NCBI RefSeq assembly: GCF_949628265.1
Contig: NC_088790.1
Span: 29,516,545-29,580,544, forward strand
From: Cloeon dipterum
Lineage: Eukaryota > Arthropoda > Insecta > Ephemeroptera > Baetidae
DNA length: 64,000 bases
Direction of reading: 5' to 3'
Below are positions 1 to 47,600 of the stretch, in pieces. The first letter of the stretch is position 1. The number at the start of each line of letters is the position of its first letter. The notes under the pieces are model-generated. The model was not told the origin of the DNA. It searched no databases and was given only the letters and a program-made list of their open reading frames with translations. The position numbers and the translations under genes were made by a program.

Positions 1-1325
1 TGATCACCCTTGATCAGCTCAATTCGAAATTCCGTGGGATTGTAACCCTTTTTGTCCTCCTCATCTTGGAGAGGATATTTGACAGGATTCACCGTGTCAT
101 TTACATTCATGTAAATTTTAGCTCTAAAAAAACAATTATTGCATCACAAATGGATTCCGAGAAAATTCCATCAAATCCCTCTACCTTTCATCATTTCCAA
201 GTTCTTTGGAAAGCTCAAGTACTGAACCTTTAGCTTCAATCATGAAGCCATCCAGTTCTTTAGGCTGATTCTTACGTGCTGAAATTTCGTCGTTCAAATA
301 GTCCAGCAATTCTCCTTCAGCTGCTCATGGAATAATTTACATAATACGTAGTATAATATGAGAATTTCTCCACGAGGTTGGATTCGATTGGCATGTGACA
401 ATTATATAATTGCCATGTAATTGCTTACTTGTCAATAGATGGTAAAATTCAAGGTTTAGAGTTTGGGCGTTCCCATTTTTTCGGTATCTTTAAATTCCCC
501 GAAAATCGAATTCTGTTAATGAAAGGGGGTAACTTCTTGACTTGAAGCACACCAAGTTTCATAGGTGCATTATTGATTTTGGCGTCTTTTTAAAGGTTTT
601 TACCGCTGCGTACAGCTAAAAATATAACCGAATGGCAATCTGAATTTGGTCTTTGAATAACTTTTAATGTGGTAGCTATAAATCCTGACGCGATACATTA
701 AAATTTTGAAATCTTCAATTCGATATCATGCAATGAAGTTCATAATAAGTGTTTAAAATTAACACAATCTTATTGTTAAAATGTAAAAATTATTAAAAGC
801 AATAACAAAATGTGCACTACTTTTATTAAAAATATGTAACTACAAAATAGTTTTATTATTTTTAAAAGTTAAGTCTAATTGATATTGCCTTTGATAACAT
901 TTTTCTTAGTAAAAGAATAAAAAATCGTTAATTTTCAACACCTAAAATATGCACTTCATTGGTACAAAAGAGAAGGATCATCTTGTCATCAAAATTAAAG
1001 ATTGCAACGCCAACCAAATGCGTCCAATCGACCTCCAATCTCGCAGAGAACTGTTCTATATATAAAATCTAAATCTAGAAAATAATATTATAATCTGTTT
1101 ACCTGTTGAGTTCACTCTCTGGTGGATGTAGCAGGAGCAGGAAAGACCGTGACTCTTGGTCGTCAGCATCTGATTATTTCCCGATGATGATGAGCACATG
1201 AGCCACAAAGGGCGTGTGGACAGATTAGTCGTGGCGTTTTTTGGGCTGGCCACAACAATTTGTCTCACAGGATTCAAAATGCTTCTTACCGATGAGATTC
1301 TCAACGCCGCTTTCACAATGTTCAT
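1..1325 (-). CDS. C1QBP: p32/C1QBP-like mitochondrial protein, left copy (3' part outside window)
   Basis: Minus-strand copy of the gene at 2686-4122. Exons seen: 1325-1103, 320-185 and 123-1 (cut by the window edge), with GT/AG borders and phases matching the right copy. Exon 1 gives a basic, Ser/Ala-rich N terminus beginning MNIVKAALRISS, typical of a mitochondrial presequence. Exon 2 reads EGELLDYLNDEISARK then KELDGFMIEAKG, resembling the start of the mature p32 fold. Exon 3 reads KIYMNVND followed by an acidic stretch and TEFRIELIKGD, the strand-rich middle of the family. I chose the start at 1325 because it aligns with the right copy; an in-frame ATG at 1361 has no counterpart there. 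p32 is a trimeric acidic matrix protein linked to mitochondrial translation. The visible part is open and looks functional, and its acidic stretch fits the family better than the right copy does. Confidence 0.8.
355..1062. repeat. Terminal-inverted-repeat insert in intron 1 of the left p32 copy
   Basis: A sequence like TCTCCGCGAGATTGGAGGT stands at both ends in opposite orientation (about 362-390 and 1018-1053). The same element, shorter, lies in intron 1 of the right copy at 2959-3358. Presence at the same place in both copies implies insertion before the gene duplicated. The rest of the insert is AT-rich without an ORF. Confidence 0.6.
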
Positions 1326-12250: not shown

Positions 12251-12616
12251 AAGGTACGAAACATTCTTGTCTTTAATTATTCAATTACGCTGGGATGCTA
12301 CAAAACAACACGAAACACAATTATAAATCTGGAAGAACAGGTTCACAATAATTTGTTTTTATTTCTCTCGAAGACTTTAATGAGAAAACCCCGTTCTGCT
12401 GAAATGTATTACAAAGCTACAAAACGTGCTTAAATCGTGGATTAATTTTTTTCAATTCAAAATTCAAATTCGAAATAATAAATATACTTAATTTGGGTGA
12501 TAAGGATGCAAACAGGAGAGAGAGGTCATAAAAAATCAAGAAGCAAAAGAATATTAAACGTCAAGCATGAGACCAACCTGCTGTCAATCCTACACGCTTT
12601 GCCGCCACGACGCCAC

Positions 12617-12630
12617 CTGCCATCTTCTGG
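12617..12630 (-). promoter_or_regulatory. CTCF-like motif upstream of 5S copy 1
   Basis: The minus strand reads CCAGAAGATGGCAG, 13 of 14 positions of CCASYAGRKGGCRS by eye. The same motif occurs before copy 3 at 19252-19265 (minus strand) and, with one more mismatch, before copy 5 at 25408-25421 (plus strand). It always points the same way relative to the 5S gene. Binding is not shown. Confidence 0.35.
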
Positions 12631-12816
12631 CGGGCCGTTGAAATTTTCCAAACTCTAGTTCACTTTTGGGCTTAAACTTTAAGAACTGTTGGGGTTTTAG
12701 GCCTTCTTGGTATTCAAAGGACTAATAAAATTGTAAATTTACGCATTTCAATGAGAATTTTTGCGGTTGGAAAAAAAACCTTGAGTATTAATACCTAAAA
12801 AGAATTATCGTTTAAT

Positions 12817-12934
12817 GTCTACGACCATATCATGTTGAACACACCGGTTCTCGTCCGATCACCGAAGTTAAGCAACATTGAGAGCAGTCAGTACTTGGAT
12901 GGGTGACCGCCTGGGAACACTGCTTGTTGTAGGC
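12817..12934 (+). rRNA. 5S rRNA gene, copy 1
   Basis: 118 nt. The ends GTCTACGA and TTGTAGGC can pair as helix I. Internal promoter: box A-like AAGTTAAGCAAC and box C-like GGATGGGTGACCGCCTGGG. A T5 pol III stop follows at 12942. Identical in sequence to copies 3, 4 and 5. Confidence 0.93.
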
Positions 12935-13280
12935 GCATAACTTTTTGCGTTTTAAGATAAAAGTTTTAGTGCGTGGCCCTTGCTAATTGTTAATTTTGAT
13001 TTTTTTCGGTTATTCATCCACAAATGTATAAACTGTGCAGGCCCAAACCAAAGATGTGCAAGTGTGCGGCTTTTAATCATTATAAAATGATTAAAAGGTC
13101 AATTCTGCGTTCAGCTCAATAATCCTTAGATATGACTGGAAAGGCTTTAAATTAAGGGCAAAGAAAACGTCGGCTTCTCGCTAATAGAATCGAATTTTTT
13201 CCAGAGCTCACCAGAGAGAATATTAAAAACTTCCAATCATCAGAGAAAAAGCCACGAGCCGTATTTTCTTGTTTATATAT

Positions 13281-13725
13281 TGTGGCGCCTTCTCGCCACT
13301 ACTGTCCAACTACTTTGCATTTAACCTGTATCGCCAGGTGGCAGTACAGAGGTGTGCAACAATCAGTGCACCCTTACTGCACCTTCTCTCCACTGCACCT
13401 TAAGCCTCGCACGACAGAAGTCGCAACACAATATTCTCTCTCCGGCTAGGATGAGTTTTCGTGCGAGGATGTTCTAGAAACTTTGATCTCGAATTAATTA
13501 GACCCGAACTACGGGGTAAGTGTATTAATTGTTTGTATTTGAATGTGATGTTTTTATTGTTATGATCATTTATTGTATTTGTGATTTTTGATTATTTATG
13601 TAATTTCACAGTCTTGATCCTGATCTTAGTCTTGATCTTATTACTAAACCACGAGAAATGAATAAAAGACGAATTACTACAATGAGAAAGACGCATTTCT
13701 GTCACGGCTTCCACGTATACCCACA
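13281..13725. mobile_element. Solo LTR inserted in the left palindrome arm
   Basis: Begins TGTGGCGCC and ends TACCCACA, the TG...CA form of an LTR, 445 bp, with an AATAAA near 13664. It is flanked by ATAT on both sides. The mirror position in the right arm (about 24737-24748) has the uninterrupted target. No internal retrotransposon genes are present, so this is a solo LTR. The 4-bp duplication fits Ty3/gypsy or Bel/Pao; I cannot decide. Confidence 0.75.
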
Positions 13726-13920
13726 ATATACAAAATAATTTATCACTGGAACCAAGTTACTATGAGAAGGTAAGTTGAAAATTGAACTCAATGTTTTCTA
13801 AAGCGAATTGAGAATTTACATTAAAAAAATAATTCTTATCAGGAATTTGGTAAACATTTTTTACAAAACATATATTGAAAGGAAGAATTAAAACACAGAA
13901 AAATTTTATCAAACTAAAAA

Positions 13921-16892
13921 TTAACGTCTATATTTTTTAAGAACAGCAATCAGTTCCTCGTCCACAAAATACTTTTCAAACTCGCTACTGATATTGTGAT
14001 TTCCGAAAAATTGGTTGATGCCGTCGATTTCGTCATTTGTCGTTTTGCCAATCGCAAGGCTTCTTGCCAGCAATGCGTATTCAATAAAGCCAGCAAGAGT
14101 ATAAAAATCCAACGAAATGATACTAATAGTTGGCAGCGAGGCAGCAACGCATTTAATAAACGCCGCTACTTCCTTGAAATAATCAGCATTGAGAGTTCTT
14201 GCCGAGGCGAAAATCGAAAAATTAAGTTCTTTCAGTTTTCCCAAGATTTTCTTCTCTCTGATTAATGAGCTAACATTCCTAAGATCCTCAACATCAAAGT
14301 CGCATTCGTCGAACGTTATCTTTTCCAAATTCGGAGCTCGAAGGATGTCAGTCAGTCGGATGTGTTGGTTGTTAAAGACCCTGGTACAAAATAAATCATA
14401 TTATAATGAGCTTTTCGCTTCTCAAACTAATTTAAAAGAGACTTTTACCTCCTGAGAAAAATTCTGATATCCTTGAGATTGCTGAAAAACGCGACCGGCT
14501 CCAGATCTACCATGAAATGTGCCATGAATTCGAGTTTCTCCAGCTTTGGACACAAAGCTAAAAGTCGGCCGAGCGAATACTCTGTTGATACGCTATTGCA
14601 ATCATTCTCAACAAACTGAGGCGGATCATCATCATGAAAACAAATAGCCAGCAGATTTGCTCCGAATTTCTCCACAAAGAGGCGGAGAATGTTCTGCGGA
14701 ACCTTGGTGAACTCCAGACTTTCCAAGTGAACCAGCTGAAGCAACGCTTTCAACTTATCTGCTTCGTTGGCAGCGGAGGTCGACCATACAATCTGTTGAA
14801 AAACGGCATAATGTTTAAATTGTTCTTGAAATTCCCAAAATCAGTCAGTATATCAATCAGAAAAATTCAGATAGATTGCCAGATTAACAACAACATTTAA
14901 GTTAACATTTTTTCAGCGGTTTTTAATACTAAAAACAATTAGTTGACGTTCCCTGAGCAGATTTTGGTTTTTAGCGTGTGAATTTAAATAATATATCCCA
15001 AGAATATGAAACCAGAACGAAAAAGTATCTAAAAATTGAATATGAAAAATATGTGGCACCATTGTTGATAGCTTTGGAACAATGAATGGCGTTAATATCC
15101 ATTCAGGCATGCAATTTCTTTTTACATACGGAGTGGAATTGTTTTACACTTACCTTGAGATGCGTGATCAAAGGGTAAGCCAATGGTAAACGGGTGAAAC
15201 TCTCCACAGAATCATATTGAACCAGCAAGTGTCTGAGATTTGATGAGTTTCCCGAAGCTTGGGTAATTTCATTAGATGACGCATAATCTTCATAAGAGCT
15301 GAATACGCTTGAAAACGCTTGGATGACGCGAAGATTAGGGAGATTCTCAGCGCAAACTTTGGTGAGGGCATTCCTGGCACGCTTTTGATCCGCCGGTGTG
15401 TCAAACAGAAAAACTTTCAATTTTGGCATAGCGTTTTCCAGTTCATCAGCAATAATCGGCTCTGTGAAGTCAAGCCGGCCTAATATGTCGTCAGCTATGT
15501 TAAAATGTAGATATTCCAGGTCGGGAAGGCGTTGGCAAAGCCCGATCAAGTTAATAAATTTGATTGCGCAAACTTTTTCAATTCTTAGAACTTTTAGGCG
15601 TTTAAAATTTGCCAACGCCTGCAACAGCTCAACATCGGCAATATCAGAAACATTTAAGTAGTGTTCTCGAGGGGCGACGAGCAGAGAAAGCTCCTCAATG
15701 TCAGCAGCCTTTTCAGATATGCCAATCACCGTCTGTAAAAATTAACAAAATTAAATATTGCACGCCTGATATCTTCATATCAAATTCTCACCTGTTTAAA
15801 ATCTTCGTATCTTAGTCGTTTTACAGAGAAGGATAGAAAAGCCGTCAAATCGACTTTTGTGGGTCTCATGGCGAGATAGAGATGAAGAGCAGGAATCATT
15901 AACACAGACACTTCCATTGCTTCTCGCCGCAGTGAACTACACCTTGTTTCCATCAATTTTACCACAATCTTTGGAATCAATTCAATGGCTGAAAATAATC
16001 GAAATATATTTGTTGTTAACTTCGAAATAAATTTTATATTTCAGGGAAGGATTTTGTGTGTTTTCGCGAGAGTATCAAGGTATTTTTGGTCCAGATTGAA
16101 ATTTTGATGTGATCTTTTCACCTCCTGGCGAAGCTTTTTAAGTAGAACTAGCTTGCTATTGGCAAAAAATTTTTAGGTCAAAGGTCAAGGCTACAAATTC
16201 GTTCAGTTACAATTATCGCAAAATATTCCCACTCGGATTTTGTTGCAAAAACTACCCACAGTTGGAATGGTCTGGACCTGCCCTGACAAGTTGAAAGGTT
16301 TAGGGGTGCTTATCCTCCACTCCACCCCTAAATTGTTAAACTTCAACCTTCTAGAAAAGGTAAAAAAATGTAGCATCTTACAGTTAGGAATGGAGGGTAA
16401 GCACCCCTAAACCATTCAACCTGTCAGGGCAGGTCGAGACGAGTCCAACGGTGGGCAGTTTTTGCAATTCTGATGGTTAGAACCTGAGATTTGCAAAAAT
16501 ATCCGTATATGAAAATTTTCTGATATTTTCTTTTTGCGCTGCTATTTCGGATTTAATATCAGGAGCTGAAAAATTTCAAAAATCGCGAGCCCCGAATTTT
16601 TTGGTCAAATTTTCAGGTTACACCCTATGAAACACCCCTGAAAAAGTCGGTTAAAATGGACAGTTACTCTTAATACCCCACTCCAAAACACACATATAAA
16701 ACCGTCGAAAATATCTTTTAACTTGAAAAATTTGGCAATAAAATACATACGCAAGTTGGTGAGATGAGTCAGTTTGAAATCAACAGGGAGCTTCGTTCCA
16801 AAACCACAGGCAATGGCCCGGATTTGATTTGCTGCTTCTGCTTCAACTTGCATAAATTTCGACATTATTTGAAAATGAAAAGAGAATGCCAT
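13921..16892 (-). CDS. F-box-like / leucine-rich-repeat protein, left copy
   Basis: Five minus-strand exons: 16892-16751, 15988-15792, 15732-15154, 14792-14449 and 14380-13921. They join in frame to 573 codons. At the exon 1/2 junction the protein reads TNLPIELIPKIVVKL, like the first helix of an F-box (LP-x-EL-x-x-I), followed by two more helices. From residue about 115 it has irregular leucine-rich repeats (IEELSL, LKVLRIE, LEYLHFN, LRHLLV, LESLEF, LEKLEF, LKDIRIF, LEKITF). F-box/LRR proteins usually bring substrates to SCF ubiquitin ligases; whether this one binds Skp1 is inference, since the F-box is weak. The ATG lies in a CCATGG palindrome. All splice phases match the right copy and length differences are multiples of three. 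An AAATTTGG-rich MITE-like palindrome sits in intron 1. I do not know a named orthologue. Confidence 0.75.
16255..16445. repeat. Small palindromic element in intron 1 of the left F-box/LRR gene
   Basis: GACCTGCCCTGACAAGTTGA followed by AGGGGTGCTTATCCTCC is repeated in inverse near 16390-16440. The same block is at 22010-22215 in the other copy, so it predates the palindrome. Non-coding. Confidence 0.6.
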
Positions 16893-17302
16893 GGCAGCTA
16901 CTAGCTTGTCTCAACCAGTCCTCGATTGTCTTGAAACACGGCCTTCTACAGAACCACAAATGCACGCAGGATTTGAGCTGAATTTACGGAAATATTTGAA
17001 GAGGGATGTTTATTGCACAGCACGGAGAGCTAGCGTGCGTTTTCAAACACCTGTTTGCTGTTGTGACGCTGCTAGCTGTGAGAAAAGGAGGGAAAATATT
17101 ATCCCCTGATTCACCCTCAGGTCCCTCAGGTGGCAGCACTCCTTACTCAGGGAGAAATTTAAGGGCTGCTGGCGGAAACGTGCGTGAAATAAATTTATAT
17201 ATAGAGCATTTTAATTCAGGAAAAATATCCTCTTTCCTATTTTCATTTTGGCTTATACTGTCCCATTATTTTTCCTAGTTCTCAGTGAATATTTTTACAT
17301 TT

Positions 17303-17738
17303 AATTGACCAGCTGCATAAACCGTTAGTGTTCAAAGCCGCCAGCAGATGGCGCAACCACAGACTTTCTTAAAAAATTTTGTTTTAAGCGGTTTTAAGGC
17401 ATTTCCGCTGCGATATCAGACTAAATCTAGCTATTTTGAGTTCTTCAATTAATTTGCTTTATTTTTTGACGTGCTGAAAACCAAAATCGGTTGAGCCATT
17501 CGCCGTAGAAACGTTGGGAAAGATTTTTTTATTTCAAAAAATAGTTTTTCACGATTCTACGGCGATTGGCTGAACCGATTTTGGTTTTCAGCACGTCAAA
17601 AAATAGCAAATTAATTGAAGAATGCACAGTAGCTAGATTGAGTCTGAAATCGCAGCGGAAGTGCCTTAAAATCGAAAGTCTACGGTGGCGCCATCTGTTG
17701 GCGGCTTCGAACACTTAGGGTTTATGCAACTGGTGAAT
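17303..17738. mobile_element. Foldback MITE family C, copy C1
   Basis: About 430 bp, almost all one long inverted repeat. The halves meet near 17520 around AAAATCGGTTGAGCCATTCG and its inverse. Flanked by AATT on both sides; the right arm has one AATT at the mirror position (about 21148) and no element. Carries CCAGCAGATGGCGC at 17341-17354 and CCAACAGATGGCGC on the minus strand at 17688-17701. Other copies: 30284-30710, 31590-31932, 49599-50020 and 62068-62500. Confidence 0.8.
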
Positions 17739-17959
17739 TTTGGCACTTTTAAATAGCACAAAAATATCGGAATTGATTTAAAAAAAACAAATAGGAGCTA
17801 TATGGCATAGAAATATTAAATATGTTAAATATAAAACGAGAAAAGCTACAGCCAATTATATTTTTTAATCGAGTTATTATCTTTAGAACCGCGGCCGCTC
17901 TGAGATAAATATTTTGCTGCCATTGCTTTTCTGCTCAAAAGGGAACCGAGCGCAGCGAT

Positions 17960-18245
17960 TCATATTATTTTAATTAATCCATTGAGGACTCATATCGTCT
18001 TGGACATCTCCAGACTGTGAATATCGGAGCCGCTCATGCTGGTGAAAAAGCAGTGTCGGAGCCGAGGAACTCGGCGATGCCCATGCGGCGATGGCCGATT
18101 TGCTGTTGCCGGGGGTAGCAGGGTGGCTCGCCAACAATGCCCTCGGACACGTTAATTTGGGTCGCATGCGTCATCCAGGCCCAAACCACGGATGTGCGAG
18201 AGAGCGCCGAACCGCACAAACCGCGTCACGACGCCTGCACATTGA
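17960..18245. other. GC-richer block in the left palindrome arm
   Basis: Stands out from its surroundings and is kept in the right arm at about 20690-20935. An open frame on the minus strand here (18219-18034) and on the plus strand there (20706-20930) shares TSVVWAWMTHATQINVSEGI and then GEPPCYPR. The frame breaks after about 50 codons and an internal tract differs in length between arms. It may be an exon fragment of a captured gene; I do not recognise it. Confidence 0.35.
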
Positions 18246-18269
18246 CAGAAGTCGACATACATTTTTTTA

Positions 18270-18387
18270 ACTGATTTAGGACTGACAAAGGACTGATTAA
18301 ATCTCAGATTTATGCATTTGAATGAGAAATCTTGCGGCTGGAGGAAAAATGTTGAGTCTAAATTTTTGTGAAGTCCTCATGAACATT
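18270..18387 (+). promoter_or_regulatory. Conserved 5S upstream region
   Basis: All five 5S copies share about 110-130 bp upstream, with the order AAAGGACTGATTAAA, ATTTCAATGAGAA, TTGCGGCTGGAG and TTGAGTCTAAAT. Corresponding positions: about 12712-12816, 19352-19453, minus strand 20339-20445 and minus strand 25219-25330. Known 5S genes use internal boxes A and C plus short upstream elements; the length conserved here may just reflect recent copying. Confidence 0.5.
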
Positions 18388-18505
18388 GTCTACGACCATA
18401 TCATGTTAAACACACCGGTTCTCGTCCGATCACCGAAGTTAAGCAACATTGAGAGCAGTCAGTACTTGGATGGGTGACCGCCTGGGAACACTGCTTGTTG
18501 TAGGC
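18388..18505 (+). rRNA. 5S rRNA gene, copy 2
   Basis: 118 nt. Differs from the other four copies only by G to A at 18408 (nucleotide 21 of the RNA). Box A, box C and the terminal helix are intact. A T5 terminator lies at 18513. Counterpart of copy 4 in the other arm. Confidence 0.92.
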
Positions 18506-18679
18506 GCATAGCTTTTTGCGCTTTCATATAAATGTTTTTAGTGCGTGAAACTTGTAAACCACATGTTGGGTAACCCTTGCTTGTTATTAATTTTAATTTT
18601 TGCGGTTTTAGTTGGTTTTTCGCCAACTAATGTGCCAAGCGCATAGGCGGAAATGGTGTTTTTTTCTGTTTGATGATTT

Positions 18680-20040
18680 TTTTTAAAGGAATTAGAGTAA
18701 TGAATGTCCTACTTTGTTCTGCAGTACACAGGGCTCTGTTGCTAGGGTCGGTTACCCTCTCTCGGTAATAAATTTACATTGGTGTTATTATCATGCTGTT
18801 TAGACAAACAACTAGATGTGCGTCTATACATAATTCGGTTCTTTGTAATTCACAAGGCAGTCTGTTTTTACCTTCTATCTTTAAAACACAAAACAAGCGT
18901 CTCTTGGATGAAAACACTCTTTCAAAGAAATGTTTTGGCTGGCCCAGCAGTGTTTTTCATATACTATCTCTGGTTTCGAAGCAAATTTGCATAAGTATTA
19001 AGTTTAGTTTATTATATTGGTTTTCATGCGATTTAATTACCTATTTGATTGCACTATTTATAGCGAAAATTCTTTAATACTTGCTAAAATAGCATATGTA
19101 CATGATAATACAAAGTTAAGTTACTCAATTTCAGTCATCAGAATGAAAACAGGAGAGAAGATTAATTAAAAAATTCAAGAAGCAAAAGAATTAAACAGCG
19201 AGCATGAGACCAACTTATTATCATTTTTACGCCTTACCGCCAACAACGCCACTGCCATCTTCTGGCGGGCCGTTGAACTTTTTGAAACTCTAGATCGCTT
19301 TGGTTGTGAAACAAAAATAAAAAAAAGAGTTTTAAAGCCCTTTTAGTAATCAAAGGACTGATTAAAAGTTCATATTAACGCAGTTCAATGAGAATTCTTG
19401 CGATTGGAGAAAAAGATTTGAGTCTAAATATCTGTAGAGTTCTTATTCACATTGTCTACGACCATATCATGTTGAACACACCGGTTCTCGTCCGATCACC
19501 GAAGTTAAGCAACATTGAGAGCAGTCAGTACTTGGATGGGTGACCGCCTGGGAACACTGCTTGTTGTAGGCGCATACCTTTTTGTATTTTCAAATTAATG
19601 TTTTTGTGCGTGAAACTTTTACCACATATAAGGTGACGACCCTTGCTAACAATAGTTGAGTTTTTCTTAATTTTTTTTAGTTTTTCTCACAAAATATAAT
19701 TATGTAAATCGCATAGGCGAAAATGGTGTTTTTTCGCCTTTTTCCGCGATTTTTCCAACGCCTCTTTGCCGACTTTTTACGTCAAAAATCACAAACCAAC
19801 ACATAGGAAATCGCTTTTTAAACTTTATAATATAAAAATAAAATATTGAAGCAAATTCCCACTAAAAATAATGTTCGACTCCAGCTCAGGAGCTTTCTGA
19901 ATCATTCCTGTTTTTCGACAGATTCCCGGGATTGATCTCAGGGTGGAGGTGCCCTGAAGAAGGTCGTCTGGGTAGGTCAGTAGATAAAGCTTGTCGAGAC
20001 CTTTCGTTTGAGACTTCGTGACTTGAAATCCAGCAAACCG
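18680..20040. other. Spacer between palindrome arms
   Basis: About 1.36 kb holding 5S copy 3 with its own flanks (about 19140-19780). The first part (18680-19130) is AT-rich, with an ORF of 94 codons (18793-19077) that lacks any recognisable motif. Confidence 0.5.
19454..19571 (+). rRNA. 5S rRNA gene, copy 3
   Basis: 118 nt, lying in the spacer between the palindrome arms. Its upstream 300 bp resembles that of copy 1, including the GCATGAGACCAAC motif, so it is a separate repeat unit and not an arm end. T5 terminator at 19579. Confidence 0.93.
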
Positions 20041-20220
20041 TTGAATTTTAACAGAAAAAAAAACATTTCCGCCTCTGCTCTTTACACATGTGGGCGAAAA
20101 ACCGACAGAAATCATAAAAATCAAAATTATTAATTGGCAATACGCTACAAAGGTTACCCGACATGTAGGTTCCAAGTTTCGCGCACAAAAACATTTATTT
20201 GAAAGCGCAAAAAGGTTTGC

Positions 20221-20338
20221 GCCTACAACAAGCAGTGTTCCCAGGCGGTCACCCATCCAAGTACTGACTGCTCTCAATGTTGCTTAACTTCGGTGATCGG
20301 ACGAGAACCGGTGTGTTCAACATGATATGGTCGTAGAC
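20221..20338 (-). rRNA. 5S rRNA gene, copy 4
   Basis: 118 nt on the minus strand, identical to copies 1, 3 and 5. The minus-strand terminator is the A5 run at 20209-20213. Mirror partner of copy 2. Confidence 0.93.
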
Positions 20339-21565
20339 AATGCTCCATAGGACTTCTCAAAAATTTAGACTCAACATTTTTCCTCCAGCCGCAAGGTTTC
20401 TCATTGAAATGTATAAATTTACGATTTAATCAGTCCTTTGATTACCTATAATCCACATAATTCTCTTAATTTTAAGACCAAAGCGTTCTAGAAGTGGAAA
20501 AGGTTCAACAAACACCTTTAGTTTGAAAACCAATTTACGTTTTAATAAATCAATTCTAAAAATTATAAAGAAAAGATAATATAAAGCTTCATTGTAAATG
20601 CAAAATAAAAGTCGAGACGAAAATTTTAAAGATTTAAAATTTTTAAAAATTGTCAAAATCAGTTAAAAAAATTTATGTCGACTATTCTGTCAATGTGCAG
20701 GCGTCGTGACGCGGTTTGTGCGGTTCGGCGCTCCTCGCACATCCGTGGTTTGGGCCTGGATGACGCATGCGACCCAAATCAACGTGTCCGAGGGCATTGT
20801 TGGCGAGCCACCCTGCTACCCCCGGCACCAGCAAATCGGCCATCGCCGCATGGGCATCGCATCGGCTCCAACGACACTGGTTTCACAGTCTGGAGGTGTC
20901 CAAGACGATTATGAGTCCTCAATGGATTAATTAAAATATTAAATATGAATCACTTCCCTTTCGAGCAGAAAAGCAATGGCAGCAAAATATTTATCTCAGA
21001 GCGGCCGCGGTTCTAAAGATAATAACTCGATTAAAAAATATAATTGGCTGTAGCTTTTTTCGTTTTTTATTTAATATTTCTATGCCTTAGCTCCTATTTT
21101 TTTTTAAATCTGATTGAATTCCGATATTTTTGTGCTATTAAAAGTGCCAAATTAAAAGTCAAAATATTTCACTGAGAACTAGGAAAAATAATGGGACAGT
21201 ATAGGCCAAAATGAAAATAGGAAAGATGATTATATTTCCTGAATTAAAAAAAGCTCTATGTATAAATCTATTTCATGCACGTTTCCGCCACCAGCCACCA
21301 GCCCTCAAATTTCTCCCTGAGTGAGGAGTGCTGCCACCTGAGGGTGAATCAGGGGATAATATTTTCCCTCCTTTTCTCACAGCTAGCAGCGTCGCAACAG
21401 CAAACAGGTGTTTGAAAACGCACGCTAGCTCTCGTGCATTGCAATAAACATCCTTCTTCGAAAAATTCCCGTAAATTCAGCTCAAATCCTGCGTGCATTT
21501 GTGGATGTGAAGAAGACCGTGTTCCAAGATAATCGAGGACTCGTTGGGACAAGCTAGTAGCTGCC

Positions 21566-24547
21566 ATGGCATTCTCTTTTCATTTTCAAATAATGTCGAA
21601 ATTTATGCAAATTGAAGCAGAAGCAGCAAATCAAATCCGGGCCATTGCCTGTGGTTTTGGAACGAATCTACCTGTTGATTTCAAACTGACTGATCTCACC
21701 AACTTGCGTATGTATTTTATTGCCAAACTTTTCAAGTTAAAAGATATTTTCGACGGTTTTATATGTGTGTTTTGGAGAGAGTATTAATTAAAGAGTAATT
21801 GTCGATTTAAACCGACTTTTTCAGGGGTGTTTCATAGGGTGTAACCTGAAAATTTGACCAAAAAATTCGGGGCTCGCGATTTTTGAAATTTTTCAGCTCC
21901 TGGTATTAAATCCGAAATAGCAGCGCAAAAAGAAAATATCAGAAAATTTTCATATATACGGATATTTTTGCAAATCTCAGGTTCTAACCATCAGAATTGC
22001 AAAAACTACCCACCGTTGGACTCGTCTCGACCTGCCCTGACAAGTTGAAAGGTTTAGGGGTGCTTACCCTCCATTCCTAACTGTAAGATGCTACATTTTT
22101 TTACCTTTTCTAGAAGGTTGAAGTTTAACAATTTAGGGGTGGAGTGGAGGATAAGCACCCCTAAACCTTTCAACTTGTCAGGGCAGGTCCAGACGAGTCC
22201 AACGGTGGGTAGTTTTTGCAACAAAATCCAAGTGGGAATATTTTGCGATAGTTGTAACTGAACGAATTTGTGGCCTTGACCTTTGACCTAAAATTTTTTT
22301 AACAATAGCAAGCTTGTTCTACTTAAAAAGCTACGCGAGGAGGTGAAAAGATCACATCAAAATTCCAATCCTTGATACTCTCGCGAAAACACACAAAATC
22401 CTTCCCTGAAATATAAAATTTATTTTGAAGTTAACTACAAATATATTTCGATTATTTCCAGCCATTGAATTGATTCCAAAGATTGTGGTAAAATTAATGG
22501 AAACAAGGTGTAGTTCACTACGGCGAGAAGCAATGGAAGTGTCTGTGTTAATGATTCCTGCTCTTCGTCTCTATCTCGCCATGAGACCCACAAAAGTCGA
22601 TTTGACGGCTTTTCTATCCTTCTCTGTAAAACGACTAAAATACCATGATTTTAAACTGGTAAGAATTTGATATGAAGGTATCAGGCATGCAATTTAATTT
22701 TGTTAATTTTTACAGACGGTGATTGGCATATCTAAAACGGCTGCTGACATTGAGGAACTTTCTCTGCACGGCGCCCCTAAAGAACACTTAATTTTTTATG
22801 CTTTGGCCGATGTTGAGCTGTTGCAGGCGTTGGCAAATTTTAAACGCCTAAAAGTTCTAAGAATTGAAAAAGTTTGCCTAATCATATTTCATAACTTGAT
22901 CGCGCTTTGCCAACGCCTTCCCGACCTGGAATATCTACATTTCAACATACATGACTACAAATTAGGCCGGCTTAACTTCACTGAGCCGATTATTGATGCT
23001 GATGATCTGAAAAACGCTATGCCAAAATTGAAAGTTTTTCTGTTTGACACACCGGCGGATCAATGGCGTGCAAGGAATGCCCTCACCAAAGTTTGCGCTG
23101 AGAATCTCCCTAATCTTCGCGTCATCCAAGCGTTTTCAAGCATATTCAGCTCTTATGAAGATTATGCGTCATCTAATGAAATTACCCAAGCTTCGGGAAA
23201 CTCATCAAATCTCAGACACTTGCTGGTTCAATATGATTCTGTGGAGAGTTTCACCCGTTTACCATTGGCTTACCCTTTGATCACGCATCTCAAGGTAAGT
23301 GTAAAAAAATTCCACTCCATATGTAAAAATACATATTTAAAAAGAAATTGCATGCCAGAATGGATATAAATGCCATTCATTGTTCCACAGCTATCAACAA
23401 TGGTGCCACATATTTTTCATATTCAATTTTTAGATAATTTTTCGTTCTGGATTCATATTCTTGGGATATATTATTTAAATTCACGCGCTACAAACCCAAA
23501 ATCTGCTCAGGGAACGTCAACTAAAAGTTTTTGGTATTAAAAACCGCTGAAAAATGTTAACTTAAATGTTGCCCTCCACACATTAATCTGGCAATCTATC
23601 TGAATTTTTCTTATTGATATTGACTGATTTTGGGAATTTCCAGAACAATTTAAACATTATGCCGTTTTTCAACAGATTGTGTGGTCGACCTCCGCTGCCC
23701 ACGAAGCAGAAAAGTTGAAACCGTTGCTGCAGCTGGCACACTTGGAAAGTCTGGAGTTCTCCAAGGTTCCGCAGAACATTATACGCCTCTTTGTGGAGAA
23801 ATTCGGAGCAAATCTACTGGCTATTTCTTTTCATGATGCTGTTGATAATCCGCCTCAGTTTGTCGAGAATGATTGCAATAGCGTATCAACAGAGTATTCG
23901 CTCGGCCAATTATTAGCTTTGTGTCCAAAGCTGGAGAAACTCGCCTTCATGGCACATTTGAAGGAAGATCTGGAGCCAATCGCGTTTTTCAGCAATCTCA
24001 AGGATATCAGAATTTTTGTCAGGAGGTAAATGTCTCTTTTAAATTAGTTTGAGAAGCGAAAAGCTCATTATAATATGATTTATTATGTACCAGGGTCTTT
24101 AACAACCAACACATCCGACTGACTGACATTCTTCGAGCTCCGAATTTGGAAAAGATAACGTTGGACGAAACCGACATTGATGTTGAGGATCTTAGGAATG
24201 TTAGCTCATTGATCAGAGAGAAGAAAATCCTGGGAAAATTGAACGAACTTCATTATTCATTTTCGGCAGGACCTTTCAATGCTGATCATTTCAAGGAAGT
24301 AGCGGCGTTCATTAAATGCGTTGCTGCCTCGCTGCCAACTATTAGTATCATTTCGTTGGATTTTTATACTTTTGCTGGCTTTGTTGAATACGCATTGCTG
24401 GCAAGAAGCTTTGCGATTGGCAAAACGACAAACGACGAAATCGACGGCATCAACCAATTTTTCGGAAATCAAAATATCAGTAGCGAGTTTGAAAAGTATT
24501 TTGTGGACGAGGAACTGATTGCTGTTCTTAAAAAATATAGACGTTAA
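21566..24547 (+). CDS. F-box-like / leucine-rich-repeat protein, right copy
   Basis: Five exons: 21566-21707, 22462-22658, 22716-23294, 23676-24025 and 24094-24547, giving 573 codons and TAA. Same architecture as the minus-strand copy at 13921-16892: N-terminal helical segment (MAFSFHFQIMSKFMQIEAEA), F-box-like TNLPIELIPKIVVKL, then leucine-rich repeats to the C terminus (VLKKYRR). Both copies are open, with matching donors and acceptors. Exon 4 is 6 bp longer and exon 5 is 6 bp shorter than in the left copy; exon 3 has compensating one-codon indels. Amino acid changes gather in the first half of exon 3, in parts of exon 4 and in the first third of exon 5, while the second half of exon 3 is almost identical at DNA level. 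No signal peptide or membrane segment. Expression is unknown. Confidence 0.78.
22010..22215. repeat. Small palindromic element in intron 1 of the right F-box/LRR gene
   Basis: Mirror counterpart of 16255-16445, with arms GTGCTTACCCTCCATTCC and GTGGAGGATAAGCACCCC. Non-coding. Confidence 0.6.
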
Positions 24548-25100
24548 CTTTTAGTTTGATAAAATTTTTCTGTGTTTTAATTCTTCCTTTCAATATATGT
24601 TTTGCAAAAAATGTTTACCGAATTCCTGATAAGAATTATTTTTTTTAATGTAAATTCTCAATTCGCTTTAGAAAACATTGAGTTCAATTTTCAACTTACC
24701 TTCATAGCTACTTGGTTCCATTGATAAATTTTTTGTATATATAAACAAGAAAATACGGCTCGTGGCTTTTTCTCTGGTGATTGGAAGTTTTTAATATTCT
24801 CTCTGATGAGCTCTGGAAAAATTCGATTCCATTAGCGATAAGCCGACGTTTTCTTTGCCCTTTATCCAGTCATATTTAAATTATTGAGCTGAAGGCAAAA
24901 TTGACCTTTTAATCATTTTATAATGATTAATTTTTAATCACTTTATCATTTTATAATGATTAAAAGCCACGCACTTGCACATCTTTGGTTTGGGCCTGCG
25001 CAGTTTATACATTTGTGGATGAATAACCGAAAAAATCAAAATTAACTATTAGCAAGGGTCACGCACTAAAACTTTTATCTTAAAACGCAAAAAGGTATGC

Positions 25101-25218
25101 GCCTACAACAAGCAGTGTTCCCAGGCGGTCACCCATCCAAGTACTGACTGCTCTCAATGTTGCTTAACTTCGGTGATCGGACGAGAACCGGTGTGTTCAA
25201 CATGATATGGTCGTAGAC
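25101..25218 (-). rRNA. 5S rRNA gene, copy 5
   Basis: 118 nt on the minus strand, identical to copies 1, 3 and 4. Terminator A5 at 25089-25093. Mirror partner of copy 1. Confidence 0.93.
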
Positions 25219-25499
25219 ACTGAACTTTTAATCTTTTCAGGTATTAATACTCAATGATTTTTCTCCAACAGCAAGAATTCTCATTGAAATACGTTAATTT
25301 ACAATTTTACTAGTCCTCTGATTACCAAAAGGGCTTAAAACCCCCATAATTACAACAATTTTAAGACCAAAACGATTTTTTAAAGTTTAAAAAGGTTTAA
25401 CGGCTCGCCGGAAGATGGCAGTGGCGTTGTTGGCGGCAAGGCGTAAAAACGACAGGTTGCTCTCATGCTCGATGTTGCCCTCTCCACGTGAACCAACAC

Positions 25500-25978: not shown

Positions 25979-26404
25979 TTTAAGTGGAATGATGCAGAGC
26001 AACAATTGAAAATAATTTGAATTGTTGGAACAATTGATCGATAAACAATTTGATCAACAATTTGCAATAGTAAAAAAGGACCTTTCTACAGTAAAAATTC
26101 AAATTTTGCCAATTTTCTCCAAAATTTACAATGCTTGAACATATTTTCTTGGCATATTCCGATTCCTCTCGTCGAGATCTTTCCAACGGTTCATTGGGGA
26201 AACTCTTGGTTTTGAAATTAAATCGGATTTCAAGTAAGGAGACAGCCATTACCATTTGAAAAGCACGCTCACTTTCCAGCCAATTTTGTCAAAAAATTAC
26301 AGCGCTCCTTAGGTCAATTTAGGCTTTAACTGAATCCTAAGGGACGAGTTTATGCATTGGCAACAAGCGTTTTCCAGGATTTTGCACTATCATTCCTCTT
26401 TAAG
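25979..26404. mobile_element. MITE family B copy
   Basis: Ends TTTAAGTGGAATGATGCAGAG and CACTATCATTCCTCTTTAAG are inverted repeats. Internal GTCGAGATCT and CAAGTAAGGAGACAG landmarks are present. Non-coding; the 91-codon minus-strand ORF at 25980-26255 is a family feature without a domain. Confidence 0.75.
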
Positions 26405-26409
26405 TTTGG

Positions 26410-27620
26410 ATATGATTTATTTTAAATAATAAAGAAATAATGCATGCAAAGCTGATGGATTAAACTAAATAAAATATTAATTTTAAACCTCCATGTGATT
26501 TGGCCAGAAAATTAACAATTTTTAACTCCTTCTGAATTTTGAGCATGGAATTTCCTTATTTTATCAATTAAATCGTGAACCAAATTTTAAAATATTCAGA
26601 TTAATTTTTATTGAAAGTAATTGATCGTAAAATTATTACATTTTAATGAACTCAATATTGGATGGTATTACACAATTTTACTTGCGATGGTATTAATAAA
26701 ATGAAGTCTATCCCGCTATTAATATTTAAGAAATCTTTAAATAGAATAAAAAATTTTGTTGCGCTGGTAATAAAATAATTTAAGAAAAAATGTGGAAGTA
26801 TATTATTTTATAAATTTCTATCCGTATTTTTTATTTATTAATTCAAAGACGGGTAGAAAAAATTCCATTTGATCATCTTCACATTTTGAAATTGTATTGC
26901 AAACGAAATTTTACATTCTGATTAATTCTTATTTTTAATTTCTCGCCTATGAAATTGATAGAGGTTTTAATTTGTAACCAAATGACATATTTTTTAAAAA
27001 ATATCAAACGAAATATATAAAATTGTAATTCTAATTTATTTCAACGTCACTTTTCATTAAATAAAAATGTATCCTTGAAGGCTTTGGTGCCAAGAAAACC
27101 TCTCAAATCAATCTTAAAATAGGAGCAACTCGAGTGTGAATCAGTGACAGCTAGCTTTTGATTAGAATAGAGCAATTATTACGATGCATCAAGTGTCCAT
27201 ATTTTTATCCCACACTCGTGAACGGAATATGTGAAAAGCTAGATGCGAGGTCGTGCAGCGCACAGAGTAAAAAATCGAGCGAAAGGCAGGCTGGCAGGCA
27301 ATGACCGTGCCCGCGCGCACTGGTCACTCGCAAGGTCATTACACCGCCCTGAGTATGCACATCTCGCGGTTTAGCGCACAGATCGAGCAGCACCGAAAAT
27401 ATACACATATTTCAAACGCCGCACACGAGATAGCTATTACGTAAGGTAAAAAAATAAGAAATGATGTACTTTCCCAGCGGCACCATTAATTTTATCTTCA
27501 ACCGCCATTAACGACCGCGGTTGTTGGTTTTCATTCAGAATTAGAGAAATGTTTTCTTGCGGCTTAAGTGCAAAAATGTGTCGTTTCCCTGTTGATTGAC
27601 TCATAACATTCATTGATGCT
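26410..27620. other. AT-rich gap with one GC-richer patch
   Basis: 26410-27180 shows nothing but AT-rich DNA. About 27200-27440 is less AT-rich (GACCGTGCCCGCGCGCACTGG) and could be regulatory. No gene seen. Confidence 0.35.
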
Positions 27621-27624
27621 TTGA

Positions 27625-28065
27625 TTTAAAGAGGAATGATACTGGAAAAGCCTGGAAAATGCTTATTGCCAATGCATAAACTCGTCCCTTAGGATTCAGT
27701 TAAAGCCTAAATTGACCTAGGAAGCACTGGAATTTTTCGAGAAAATTGGCTGGAAAGTTACCGTGCTTTTCAAATGGTAATGGCTGTCTCCTTACTTGAA
27801 ATCCGATTTAATTTCAAAACCAAGAGTTTGCCCAATAAGTGGCAAACACAATTGGACAGATCTCGACGAGAAGAATCGGAATATGCCAAGAAAATATGTT
27901 CAAGCACTGCAAATTTTGGAGAAAATTGGCAAAATTTTAATTTTTATTGTAGGAAGGTCCATTTTCTATTATTGCAAATTGTTGTCAAGTTAATGGATCA
28001 ATAGTTTATGGTATCCAACAATTTAAATAATTTTCAATTGTTGCCCAGTTTCATTCCACTTTAAA
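27625..28065. mobile_element. MITE family B copy, near full length
   Basis: TTTAAAGAGGAATGATACTGG at the left and CATTCCACTTTAA at the right. 441 bp. Immediately followed by a second, partial B-like element to about 28335. Confidence 0.8.
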
Positions 28066-44600: not shown

Positions 44601-47600
44601 ATAAAAATAGGATTTCAAGTAAGGAGACAGTCGTCCTCTCCATTGCTAATTTTGCAGGCACTTTTCTCAAAAATTATTAGCCCAATTTTGGTTTCAACTT
44701 TATATGCGTTGGTAAGAATTATTTTCCAGGCTTTTGCAATATATAACCTGTCTCAAACTAAAAGATTTGAATTAATGTGAAAATCGACTTAAATTTGTGC
44801 ACTTTCAAGATTGTATTTTGAGAATAATCTATTTAATATCCATTTAATCAACATATTTGTGACTTAGGGCATGCTTCGAGATTTTAATTTATTATCTTTG
44901 TTCAATTTTAATTGTTGGCCGTGCATTTTATACGATTTTGTTCTAAATAATAAATTTATTTAATAAATAAACAGGAAAAATAAAAACAACATTACACAGA
45001 CAAATTTATGAAATTTTAATTTAATTAAATTAAAAAATGGCTTTCTAGCTCTGTGCTGAAACAGCCATTGTGCAATATGAAAGTGTGTTTTTAAGTTTTT
45101 CTCTCAGATGCATTTGTTAATAGCCTTTGAACAATACGTTATGTAGGAGAATTCTTAAACAAACAACGAGTAAAATGCTTTTCTGCTTGAGAGCTGAATG
45201 CATTGATTTTTTTTTAAACTTTAATATACCACAAAAGCGCGAGGATTTACAAGTAAAAAACATGATTTTTGTTTACGTTTATTTCAATAAAAAAGGAAAT
45301 AATTAAAAAAAATATGAGCTAATTAATTTGACTGAAAAAAGAGACTGAAATTTTAAGATTTTCATTTTCTAGAGTCAATAAAATTATCGCTTTTATGTCA
45401 ACGAATCATAATTTTATTTTAGATGGTTTTAAATTATTTTAACGATTGGGAAAGGTCAGGAAAAAAATTTGCCACGCGCTTAATTAAAACCGAGTAAATC
45501 AGTAAATCGTAATTAAATAAAATCGCTTTTAACCCACCATATTATTCTTGATTAGTTTGCCTATCGAGAGCAGAAATTTGAAAAGTTAAAAATTCCTGGT
45601 CTCTGGTCTAAAATTTGAATTTAAAGTGGAATGATACTGGGCAACAATTGAAAATTATTGAAATTATTGGATGCCTTAAAACAATTGACCGATAAACAAT
45701 TTGTTCAACAATTTGCAATAATAAAAAAGGACATTCCTACAGTAAAAATTCAAATATTGCCAATTTTCTCCAAAAGTTAGAGTGCTTGAACGTATTTTCT
45801 TGGCATTTTTCGATTCCTCTCGTCGAGATCTGTTCAACGGTGTATGCCACTTATTGCGGAAACTCTTGGTTTTGAAATTAAATCGGATTTCAAGTAAGGA
45901 GACAGCCATTGCCATTTGAAAAGCACGCTAACTTTCCAGCCAATTTTCTCAAAAAATTACAGCGCTCCTTAGGTCAATTTAGTCTTTAACTGAATCAAAA
46001 GGGATGAGTTTATGCATTGGCAACAAGCATTTTCCAGGCTTTTCCAGTATCATTCCTCTTTAAATGAACCATTTTCCTTTTTTTTATTAAAATTCCCTTA
46101 AAAGCAGAGTTTTTACGAATAAAATGAATTTGTGCTCTTCACAGAGAGCTCAAAGGCATGAAAATTAGTCTTTTCGATCCGTCGCAGGTCGCAGCGTCCG
46201 GTATTGACGTCAATTCGCGTTTCCAAGAATCGGCGAGAAGAAAAGCAGTGCCGTGAAACAACACTTTCGCTGCCAGGGAAGGAATCAAGGATAATGCACT
46301 CGATCGGCGTGTGTGTGTGTATTGTGCAGACGTAAAATAAAAGTGCTGGCTGGCTCGGCGGCGGCGGCGGCGGCCGCTCGAGATCAGGTTAGGCCAGTCC
46401 TTGCAGCACAGCACACTCTGAAGCCCAAGCCGAGAGTTGGCGGTGCGTGTGGGAGGCGCATTATGTATTTCGCCTGCTCTCTCTCTCAGTCTCGCAGAGC
46501 CAAAGAACCAAACGAGACCCTTATTAGGCGAGCGCGAGCACCGTAGACGAATTAACGGCTTTCTCGCGCGCTGAAAAATTGCATTATTATACACTTTGAG
46601 ACACACGAGACCGAATAGGAAAATCAACTCGAGACGAGAACGACAATTAATTAATTATGCTGGGAATTTTTAACCTCACTCAGCAAGCGGCCAATTGAGT
46701 GGATTTTTTTTTATTTAAAGAGGAATGATACTGGAAAAGCCTGGAAAATGCTTGTTGCCAATGCATAAACTCATCCCTTAGGATTCAGTTCAAGCCTAAA
46801 TTGACCTAAGAAGCTCTGAAATTTTTGGAGAAAATTGGCTGGAAAGTTAGCGTGCTTTTCAAATGGTAATGGCTGTCTCCTTACTTGAAATCAGATTTAA
46901 TTTCAAAAGCAAGAGTTTCCCCAATAAGTGGCATACACAATTGGACAGATCTCGACGAGAGGAATCGGAATATGCCGAGAAAATATGTTTAAGCACTGGA
47001 AATTTCGGAGAAAATTGGCAAAATTTGAATTTTAATTCTAGGAAGGTCCTTTTTTATTATTGCAAATTGTTGAACAAATTGTTTATCGGTCAATTGTTTA
47101 AGGCATCCAACAATTCAAATAATTTTCAATTGTTGCCCTGTATCATTCCACTTTAAAAGACGATTGACTGCAAAAGGCTTTTTAGAAAAGTGGCTGCAAA
47201 GTTAGCACTGTCTCCTTACTTGAAATCCTTTTTTATTTCACTGAGAAAGAGTTTCCTTTAGAGGTTTCGTACGCTGTTGGACAGATCTCGACGATAGGAA
47301 TCGAAATCTGTCAAGAAAATGTGCTCAAATTTTGGTGAAAATCCGAGAAATTGGAATTTTACTGCAAATTGTGTGTCAATCAACTGCTTTTTGCATCCAA
47401 CATTTCAAATAATTTCCAATTGTCTCTCTGTAAGTGCTAACCTCCATAAAATCATTGTTTTTAAATCAATAATTTATCCCTCATGATTCAGTTGCAGCTA
47501 AAATGGACCTAGGTTCAGCAATTTTTTATTATTATTTATTTATTTTATTTTTTGTTCATATTTTTTTTGTAAAGGATCGTTTTAGCTTTATTTTGTTGTG

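What the first reader, a model, noticed from the sequence alone, without database searches (positions are those of the whole stretch)
12540..25470. A 13-kb imperfect palindrome joins 5S rRNA genes to two intact F-box/LRR genes
Both arms carry the same order of parts in mirror image, with a 5S gene at or near each arm end and a fifth in the spacer. 5S units may have been the substrate for the inversion, since inverted 5S copies can recombine or switch templates. Both protein genes are open, so the palindrome is probably not just debris.
Basis: partly seen in the sequence, partly recalled or inferred. Interest (0 to 1): 0.75.

Follow-up and report, generated by a model that had tools for sequence, protein, structure and literature searches.

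The report
Inverted gene duplication bounded by 5S genes
A real 13-kb mirror-image duplication carries two intact, freely diverging leucine-rich-repeat-like genes, and its edges lie at 5S ribosomal RNA genes, which elsewhere in the same genome also mark points where neighbouring DNA has been flipped.

Summary
The palindrome is real. Arms 12557-18670 and 20050-25476 mirror each other (5S, protein gene, 5S); a fifth 5S lies in the spacer. Core identity is 4133 of 4362 columns (94.7%), with arm-specific insertions, so an assembly echo is unlikely. Both genes are intact (five exons, 573 aa) and belong to a multi-copy family with weak leucine-rich-repeat similarity; no F-box model matched. Coding and non-coding divergence are equal (5.3%, 5.2%), yet 4 of 4 coding indels are multiples of 3, against 5 of 33 non-coding.

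The guess that 5S units were the substrate gains support. Arm-level identity stops just outside the 5S gene at both ends while the flank beyond is still 5S-unit sequence; at the outer end E's distal upstream groups with C, not A. Elsewhere in this genome 14 of 15 neighbouring 5S pairs within 1 kb are inverted, and on contig C2 a spacer is flipped between two inverted 5S genes (195/213 inverted, 147/207 direct). A control showed that the 100 bp upstream of a 5S gene diverge fast without any breakpoint, so that stretch is not used as breakpoint evidence. The inner edge is only suggestive: B and D stay nearest relatives there.

The parts
12485..13045 (+). 5S unit A (outer left): upstream flank shared with unit C from 12485, 5S gene 12817-12935, downstream flank
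   Evidence: Self-blast 12485-12975 vs 19122-19612, 80.8%; unit alignment. Right edge read from the alignment by eye, approximate
12817..12935 (+). 5S rRNA gene A
   Evidence: Rfam 108.6 bits; identical to C, D and E
13281..13730 (+). 450-bp insertion found in the left arm only; solo-LTR-like (ends read by eye, not tested)
   Evidence: gap in arm alignment, sequence
13921..16892 (-). left protein gene, five exons: 16892-16751, 15988-15792, 15732-15154, 14792-14449, 14380-13921; 573 aa, weak LRR similarity
   Evidence: GT-AG splice model made by eye, no stop inside; LRR_14 E 3e-5, 23.3 bits against a cut-off of 40
16243..16467 (.). fold-back repeat in intron 1, also in the right arm (21997-22221), hence older than the duplication
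17305..17739 (+). 434-bp interspersed repeat, left arm only; many copies in the genome
18286..18670 (+). 5S unit B (inner left); 5S gene 18388-18506, one base different from A
   Evidence: its far upstream part (207 bp present in the right arm) is missing here
18698..19107 (.). interspersed repeat between units B and C
   Evidence: genome hits at 71-85% to this stretch
19122..19735 (+). 5S unit C (spacer); 5S gene 19454-19572
20050..20509 (-). 5S unit D (inner right); 5S gene 20220-20338
21566..24547 (+). right protein gene, five exons: 21566-21707, 22462-22658, 22716-23294, 23676-24025, 24094-24547; 573 aa, weak LRR similarity
   Evidence: GT-AG splice model made by eye, no stop inside; LRR_14 E 0.0026
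24991..25476 (-). 5S unit E (outer right); 5S gene 25100-25218; distal upstream flank groups with unit C, not A
   Evidence: Left edge approximate

Best explanation
An inverted segmental duplication made by ectopic recombination between 5S units. Shown: a young block (about 5% diverged) made of 5S, protein gene and 5S exists twice in opposite orientation; its edges coincide with 5S units on both sides; the flanks just beyond are still homologous 5S-unit sequence but more diverged, and at the outer end differently related; on contig C2 of the same genome a spacer lies flipped between two inverted 5S genes. Inferred: a break in or near a 5S unit was repaired from another 5S unit in opposite orientation and the interval between two 5S genes was copied (gene conversion or break-induced replication; re-insertion of a 5S-bounded circle is another route), carrying the protein gene as a passenger. 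Both copies then kept their reading frame and diverged freely in amino-acid sequence.
For: Core arm identity 4133/4362; it falls to 110/155 (71%) at -260..-100 of the outer 5S and 128/155 (83%) just after the inner 5S (P 4e-20 and 1e-7). Outer end: sites with A=E number 44 against 6 others downstream of the gene (119..300) and 4 against 26 at -260..-150, where E=C leads with 17 (P 2e-11; E=C 17 against A=E 4, P 0.007). The downstream flank of a 5S in a C4 duplication is not a divergence hot spot (187/189 over 119..318; against 128/155, P 3e-8). C2: the divergent spacer of one 5S trio matches that of the next trio 195/213 inverted and 147/207 direct, while the adjoining convergent spacer is direct (307/341 against 166/290 inverted) (P 4e-8). 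13 strong one-sided unit pairs (6 sharing only the upstream, 7 only the downstream flank; score 180 or more on one side, under 38 on the other) among 595 pairs, all 13 in the C2 clusters. Neighbouring 5S genes within 1 kb are inverted in 14 of 15 pairs.
Against: At the inner end B and D stay nearest relatives beyond the gene (B=D 29 sites, B=C 12, D=C 13), so no topology switch is shown there. The outer switch is not sharp: -100..0 still favours A=E (23 against 11) and -150..-100 is mixed (A=E 10, A=C 3, E=C 8), and it could be later conversion of a flank by unit C. The drop in the 100 bp upstream of the outer 5S (84/100) is discounted, because an independent C4 duplication shows 85/99 there against 3157/3226 around it. 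That C4 inverted duplication has its 5S inside at least 16 kb of matching sequence, not at an edge, so 5S is not always the breakpoint. On C2 the left flank of the two trios is not alike (146/294), and one divergent spacer of L020 and one convergent spacer of L019 match neither orientation well. The 14 of 15 includes related clusters and is not 15 independent events.
Confidence: 0.57

Rival explanations
1. Inverted duplication by 5S-independent template switching (for example microhomology-mediated), whose ends fall near 5S genes because 5S units flank the gene; later conversion among 5S flanks produced the step in identity.
For: A large inverted duplication with its 5S inside exists on C4 (35.8/35.97 Mb); B and D remain nearest relatives beyond the inner 5S, and the outer switch is gradual.
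Against: Flanks outside both edges are still 5S-unit sequence rather than unrelated, and a 5S-bounded flip occurs independently on C2.
Confidence: 0.28
2. Assembly artefact, or a second haplotype joined in inverse orientation.
For: No reads were available to exclude it.
Against: About 5% divergence, 33 short non-coding indels (under 50 bp) and three longer ones in the core, two of them insertions seen in the left arm only. An echo of one molecule would be near-identical, and false haplotype duplications are usually direct (general knowledge, recalled).
Confidence: 0.06
3. A palindrome kept alike by continuing arm-to-arm gene conversion, as in ampliconic sex-chromosome palindromes.
For: Mismatches are over-dispersed (variance/mean 1.9-2.2) and the longest identical run, 164, slightly exceeds the shuffled 95% bound of 155.
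Against: Arms are 94.7% identical, and coding and non-coding parts diverge equally.
Confidence: 0.06

Closest known systems
5S rRNA genes linked to repeat units of other multigene families (Drouin and Moniz de Sa 1995; I saw only its entry as reference 14 and a passage citing it in PMC6204057)
   Same: 5S genes sit next to members of a protein gene family
   Different: Here 5S genes bound an inverted duplication. The protein family is not closely linked to 5S elsewhere: 1 of 17 5S loci lies within 20 kb of a listed family member, and that is this one
Inversions and inverted duplications by recombination between inverted repeats (recalled)
   Same: Mirror-image arms; spacer flips between inverted repeats
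   Different: The repeats are short, apparently functional Pol III genes
5S extrachromosomal circles (PMC3225859, passages read)
   Same: A route by which 5S-bounded DNA could leave a chromosome and perhaps return
   Different: No evidence for circles was sought or found here
Mammalian sex-chromosome palindromes (recalled)
   Same: Inverted arms with protein genes
   Different: Arms here are about 5% diverged

Membership tests
F-box/LRR (FBXL) proteins | F-box domain | tested here: not met
   No F-box model among matches of 6 of 6 members with the limit set at E 10, though HMMER's filters drop most matches above 0.1; a very divergent F-box is not excluded
F-box/LRR (FBXL) proteins | leucine-rich repeats | tested here: inconclusive
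   LRR_14 in 4 of 6 members, best E 2.3e-7; the two scores shown, 23.3 and 17 bits, are below the cut-off of 40; 0 PDB sequences at E up to 1
Canonical 5S tandem array | head-to-tail repeats | tested here: not met
   14 of 15 neighbours within 1 kb are inverted. The gene list is a lower bound: 47 of 4585 first-look candidates were scored
Functional 5S rRNA gene | full-length conserved gene followed by a T run | tested here: met
   5 of 5 over cut-off over the whole model, T5 after each; A and E show 0 differences in 119, chance 0.002 at 5.25%
Functional 5S rRNA gene | transcription | not testable with these tools
   no expression data
Inverted-repeat-mediated rearrangement | breakpoints inside the repeat | tested here: inconclusive
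   Outer edge: topology switch within the 5S unit, gradual. Inner edge: identity drop only
Homogenised palindrome | near-identical arms | tested here: not met
   94.7%
5S-derived mobile element (SINE3, Cassandra) | element ends with target-site duplications | not tested
   5S flanks were compared but ends were not searched for duplications

The most novel reading that the evidence does not exclude
In this genome dispersed, inverted 5S genes work as general exchange joints: DNA lying between two 5S genes can be flipped, copied or moved as a 5S-bounded cassette, and such a cassette gave rise to a pair of fast-diversifying LRR-like genes.
Probability: 0.3. Interest if true: 0.65.

Novelty: new variant of a known kind. 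Interest (0 to 1): 0.5.

Why it matters
5S genes are usually described as tandem arrays that evolve in concert. Here they are dispersed and mostly inverted, and they appear to mark rearrangement joints. That would make a housekeeping gene a driver of local inversions and of new protein-gene copies, and it can be tested directly with haplotypes of the same species.

Tried and rejected
Rejected as breakpoint evidence: the 100 bp upstream of 5S, because the C4 control shows raised divergence there without a breakpoint; most other comparable 5S pairs also show it in the last 25 bp, the L023 pair does not (24/25). My first topology test had nevertheless counted the sites of -100..0 on the arm side; one search repeats it without them and the result stands.

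Not upheld: a close link between the protein family and 5S (1 of 17 loci within 20 kb, P 0.11). A loose one is more than random placement gives: 3 of 17 within 110 kb (P 0.012) and 4 of 17 within 200 kb (P 0.005). These distances were chosen after I had seen spacings near 100 kb, this locus is counted in each, the length of C3 was set to 35 Mb (one search shows it is a little longer), and 42 places were typed from the 90 exon matches. I leave it open.

Not shown: positive selection (Ka/Ks 0.88; of six windows one is at 2.84 and two others are above 1; no site test was run).

Led nowhere: COX1 search to name the organism (one match below the cut-off); search with the spacer, which besides the 5S units hit an interspersed repeat.

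Papers: listings (1 paper; 2; 2; 0; 4; 12 shown of 43; 6 shown of 37; 3). No title or abstract opening listed there reports a 5S-bounded inverted duplication of a protein gene; the library holds only part of the literature. Passages of PMC8961926, PMC6204057 and PMC3225859 were read, no paper in full. That transcription can raise mutation beside Pol III genes is recalled.

Full report
Setting. The window is C5:29516545-29580544 of a 190-Mb assembly in 10 contigs. The genes have introns, so it is a eukaryote; an invertebrate animal is my inference, and the organism was not identified (one search did not help).

Observation. The inverted repeat is real. From left to right: 5S A(+), protein gene (-), 5S B(+), 5S C(+), 5S D(-), protein gene (+), 5S E(-). 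All five 5S genes pass Rfam's cut-off and are followed by a T5 run. A, C, D and E are identical and B has one change; the same sequence, with at most one difference at the second base, occurs at two C1 loci, one C4 locus and one further C5 locus. In the core the left arm alone carries a 450-bp and a 434-bp insertion, and the right arm alone a 207-bp stretch; the 434-bp one is a high-copy interspersed repeat. A fold-back repeat in intron 1 is shared by both arms. An assembly echo is therefore unlikely; reads were not available.

Protein genes. Each arm holds a five-exon gene of 573 aa with GT-AG introns; the proteins are 89% identical. The family has 90 exon matches on C1 to C5, a lower bound. 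Of six paralogue loci examined, L040, L042 and L045 (C2) show matches to all five exon parts, L041 and L043 (C2) to four, and L046 (C5) is cut short. None of the 16 other 5S regions fetched (5 to 9.5 kb each) matched the proteins at E 0.01. Pfam shows weak LRR similarity and no F-box in 6 of 6. Substitutions are as frequent in coding (91/1713) as in non-coding core (138/2649). Indels are 4 against 21 expected from the non-coding rate, 4 of 4 multiples of 3 against 5 of 33 outside coding; the three longer gaps (207, 434, 450 bp) were left out of the 33 (Poisson P 6e-6). With neutral substitutions alone the simulated chance of no stop in either copy was 0.03. Ka/Ks is 0.88. So frames are kept while amino acids change; diversifying selection is possible and unproven.

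Edges. Core identity is 94.75%. Beyond the outer 5S it is 84/100, then 110/155; on the inner side it is 91/102 just upstream of the inner 5S and 128/155 beyond it. An independent inverted duplication on C4 served as control: the 100 bp upstream of its 5S are 85/99 against 3157/3226 around it, with 96/97 in the first 100 bp downstream and 187/189 over 119..318. So the 100 bp upstream of the outer 5S says little about a breakpoint, but the other drops do. The distal upstream of E (-260..-150) groups with C rather than A (17 sites against 4; A=C 9), a reversal of the arm relation (44 A=E against 6 others downstream of the gene). The change is gradual: -100..0 favours A=E 23 to 11, and -150..-100 is mixed at 10, 3 and 8. 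At the inner end only the level drops; B and D remain nearest relatives (29 against 12 and 13). Homology of the protein-gene unit to a C2 paralogue region reaches 18269 in the left arm and 20583 in the right, close to the 5S units.

Genome context. Of 47 5S matches listed, 35 score 78 bits or more and were used; 12 weaker ones were dropped. They form 17 loci; 14 of 15 neighbour pairs within 1 kb are inverted, and 14 of 18 within 10 kb; the one direct close pair is B-C, which has an interspersed repeat between its units. On C2 three fetched regions (L019, L020, L021; 6.87 to 7.13 Mb) hold alternating 5S genes. In L021 two trios 4.6 kb apart share a directly oriented convergent spacer (307/341) and right flank (300/384), but their divergent spacer is inverted (195/213 inverted, 147/207 direct); their left flanks are not alike (146/294). 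Compared with the second of these trios, L019 has a direct divergent spacer (199/213) and an inverted convergent one (318/347), while L020 has both direct (187/207, 299/333). One divergent spacer of L020 and one convergent spacer of L019 match neither orientation well. Spacers thus seem to flip separately with 5S genes as joints. Among 595 unit pairs 36 share both flanks, 53 the upstream only, 21 the downstream only, 485 neither. Many low-scoring upstream-only pairs arise because the upstream window of close head-to-head genes takes in part of the neighbour gene, so only 6 and 7 pairs with scores of 180 or more are used.

Mechanism. The simplest account is recombination between 5S units: crossing-over between inverted genes flips spacers (the pattern on C2), and repair that copies from one 5S to the next duplicates the interval (inferred for the palindrome). 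The direction of copying is unknown. A 5S circle is a possible route, since 5S circles are reported from several organisms (PMC3225859, passages). The chief rival is a 5S-independent inverted duplication with later conversion of flanks; the C4 duplication with its 5S inside shows that not every inverted duplication here ends at 5S.

Verdict. Observation confirmed; interpretation partly supported and made more specific; F-box label not supported. After checking, I lowered confidence slightly (0.58 to 0.57) because the outer switch is gradual.

Noticed in passing
L028 3794-3893 against L030 (C4 35.82/35.97 Mb): The 100 bp upstream of 5S diverge 6.6 times faster than their surroundings in a 98% identical duplication (85/99 against 3157/3226); most other 5S pairs show raised divergence in the last 25 bp. 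Possibly transcription-linked mutation (inference).
   Followed up: partly
C4:35.69-36.04 Mb: A 3-kb stretch occurs at 13 places (itself included), 10 direct and 3 inverted, at 79-92% identity: a dense cluster of segmental duplications that also holds 5S genes.
   Followed up: no
C2:6345397-6387883: Members of the protein family in a tandem array with a period of about 13.53 kb.
   Followed up: no
L021 3-626, 4745-5599, 9058-9501: Related open frames, secreted-looking by eye, alternate with inverted 5S trios on C2.
   Followed up: no
window 25979-28065 and 45620-47157: Two inverted pairs of an interspersed repeat of about 440 bp, copies 87-92% alike.
   Followed up: no
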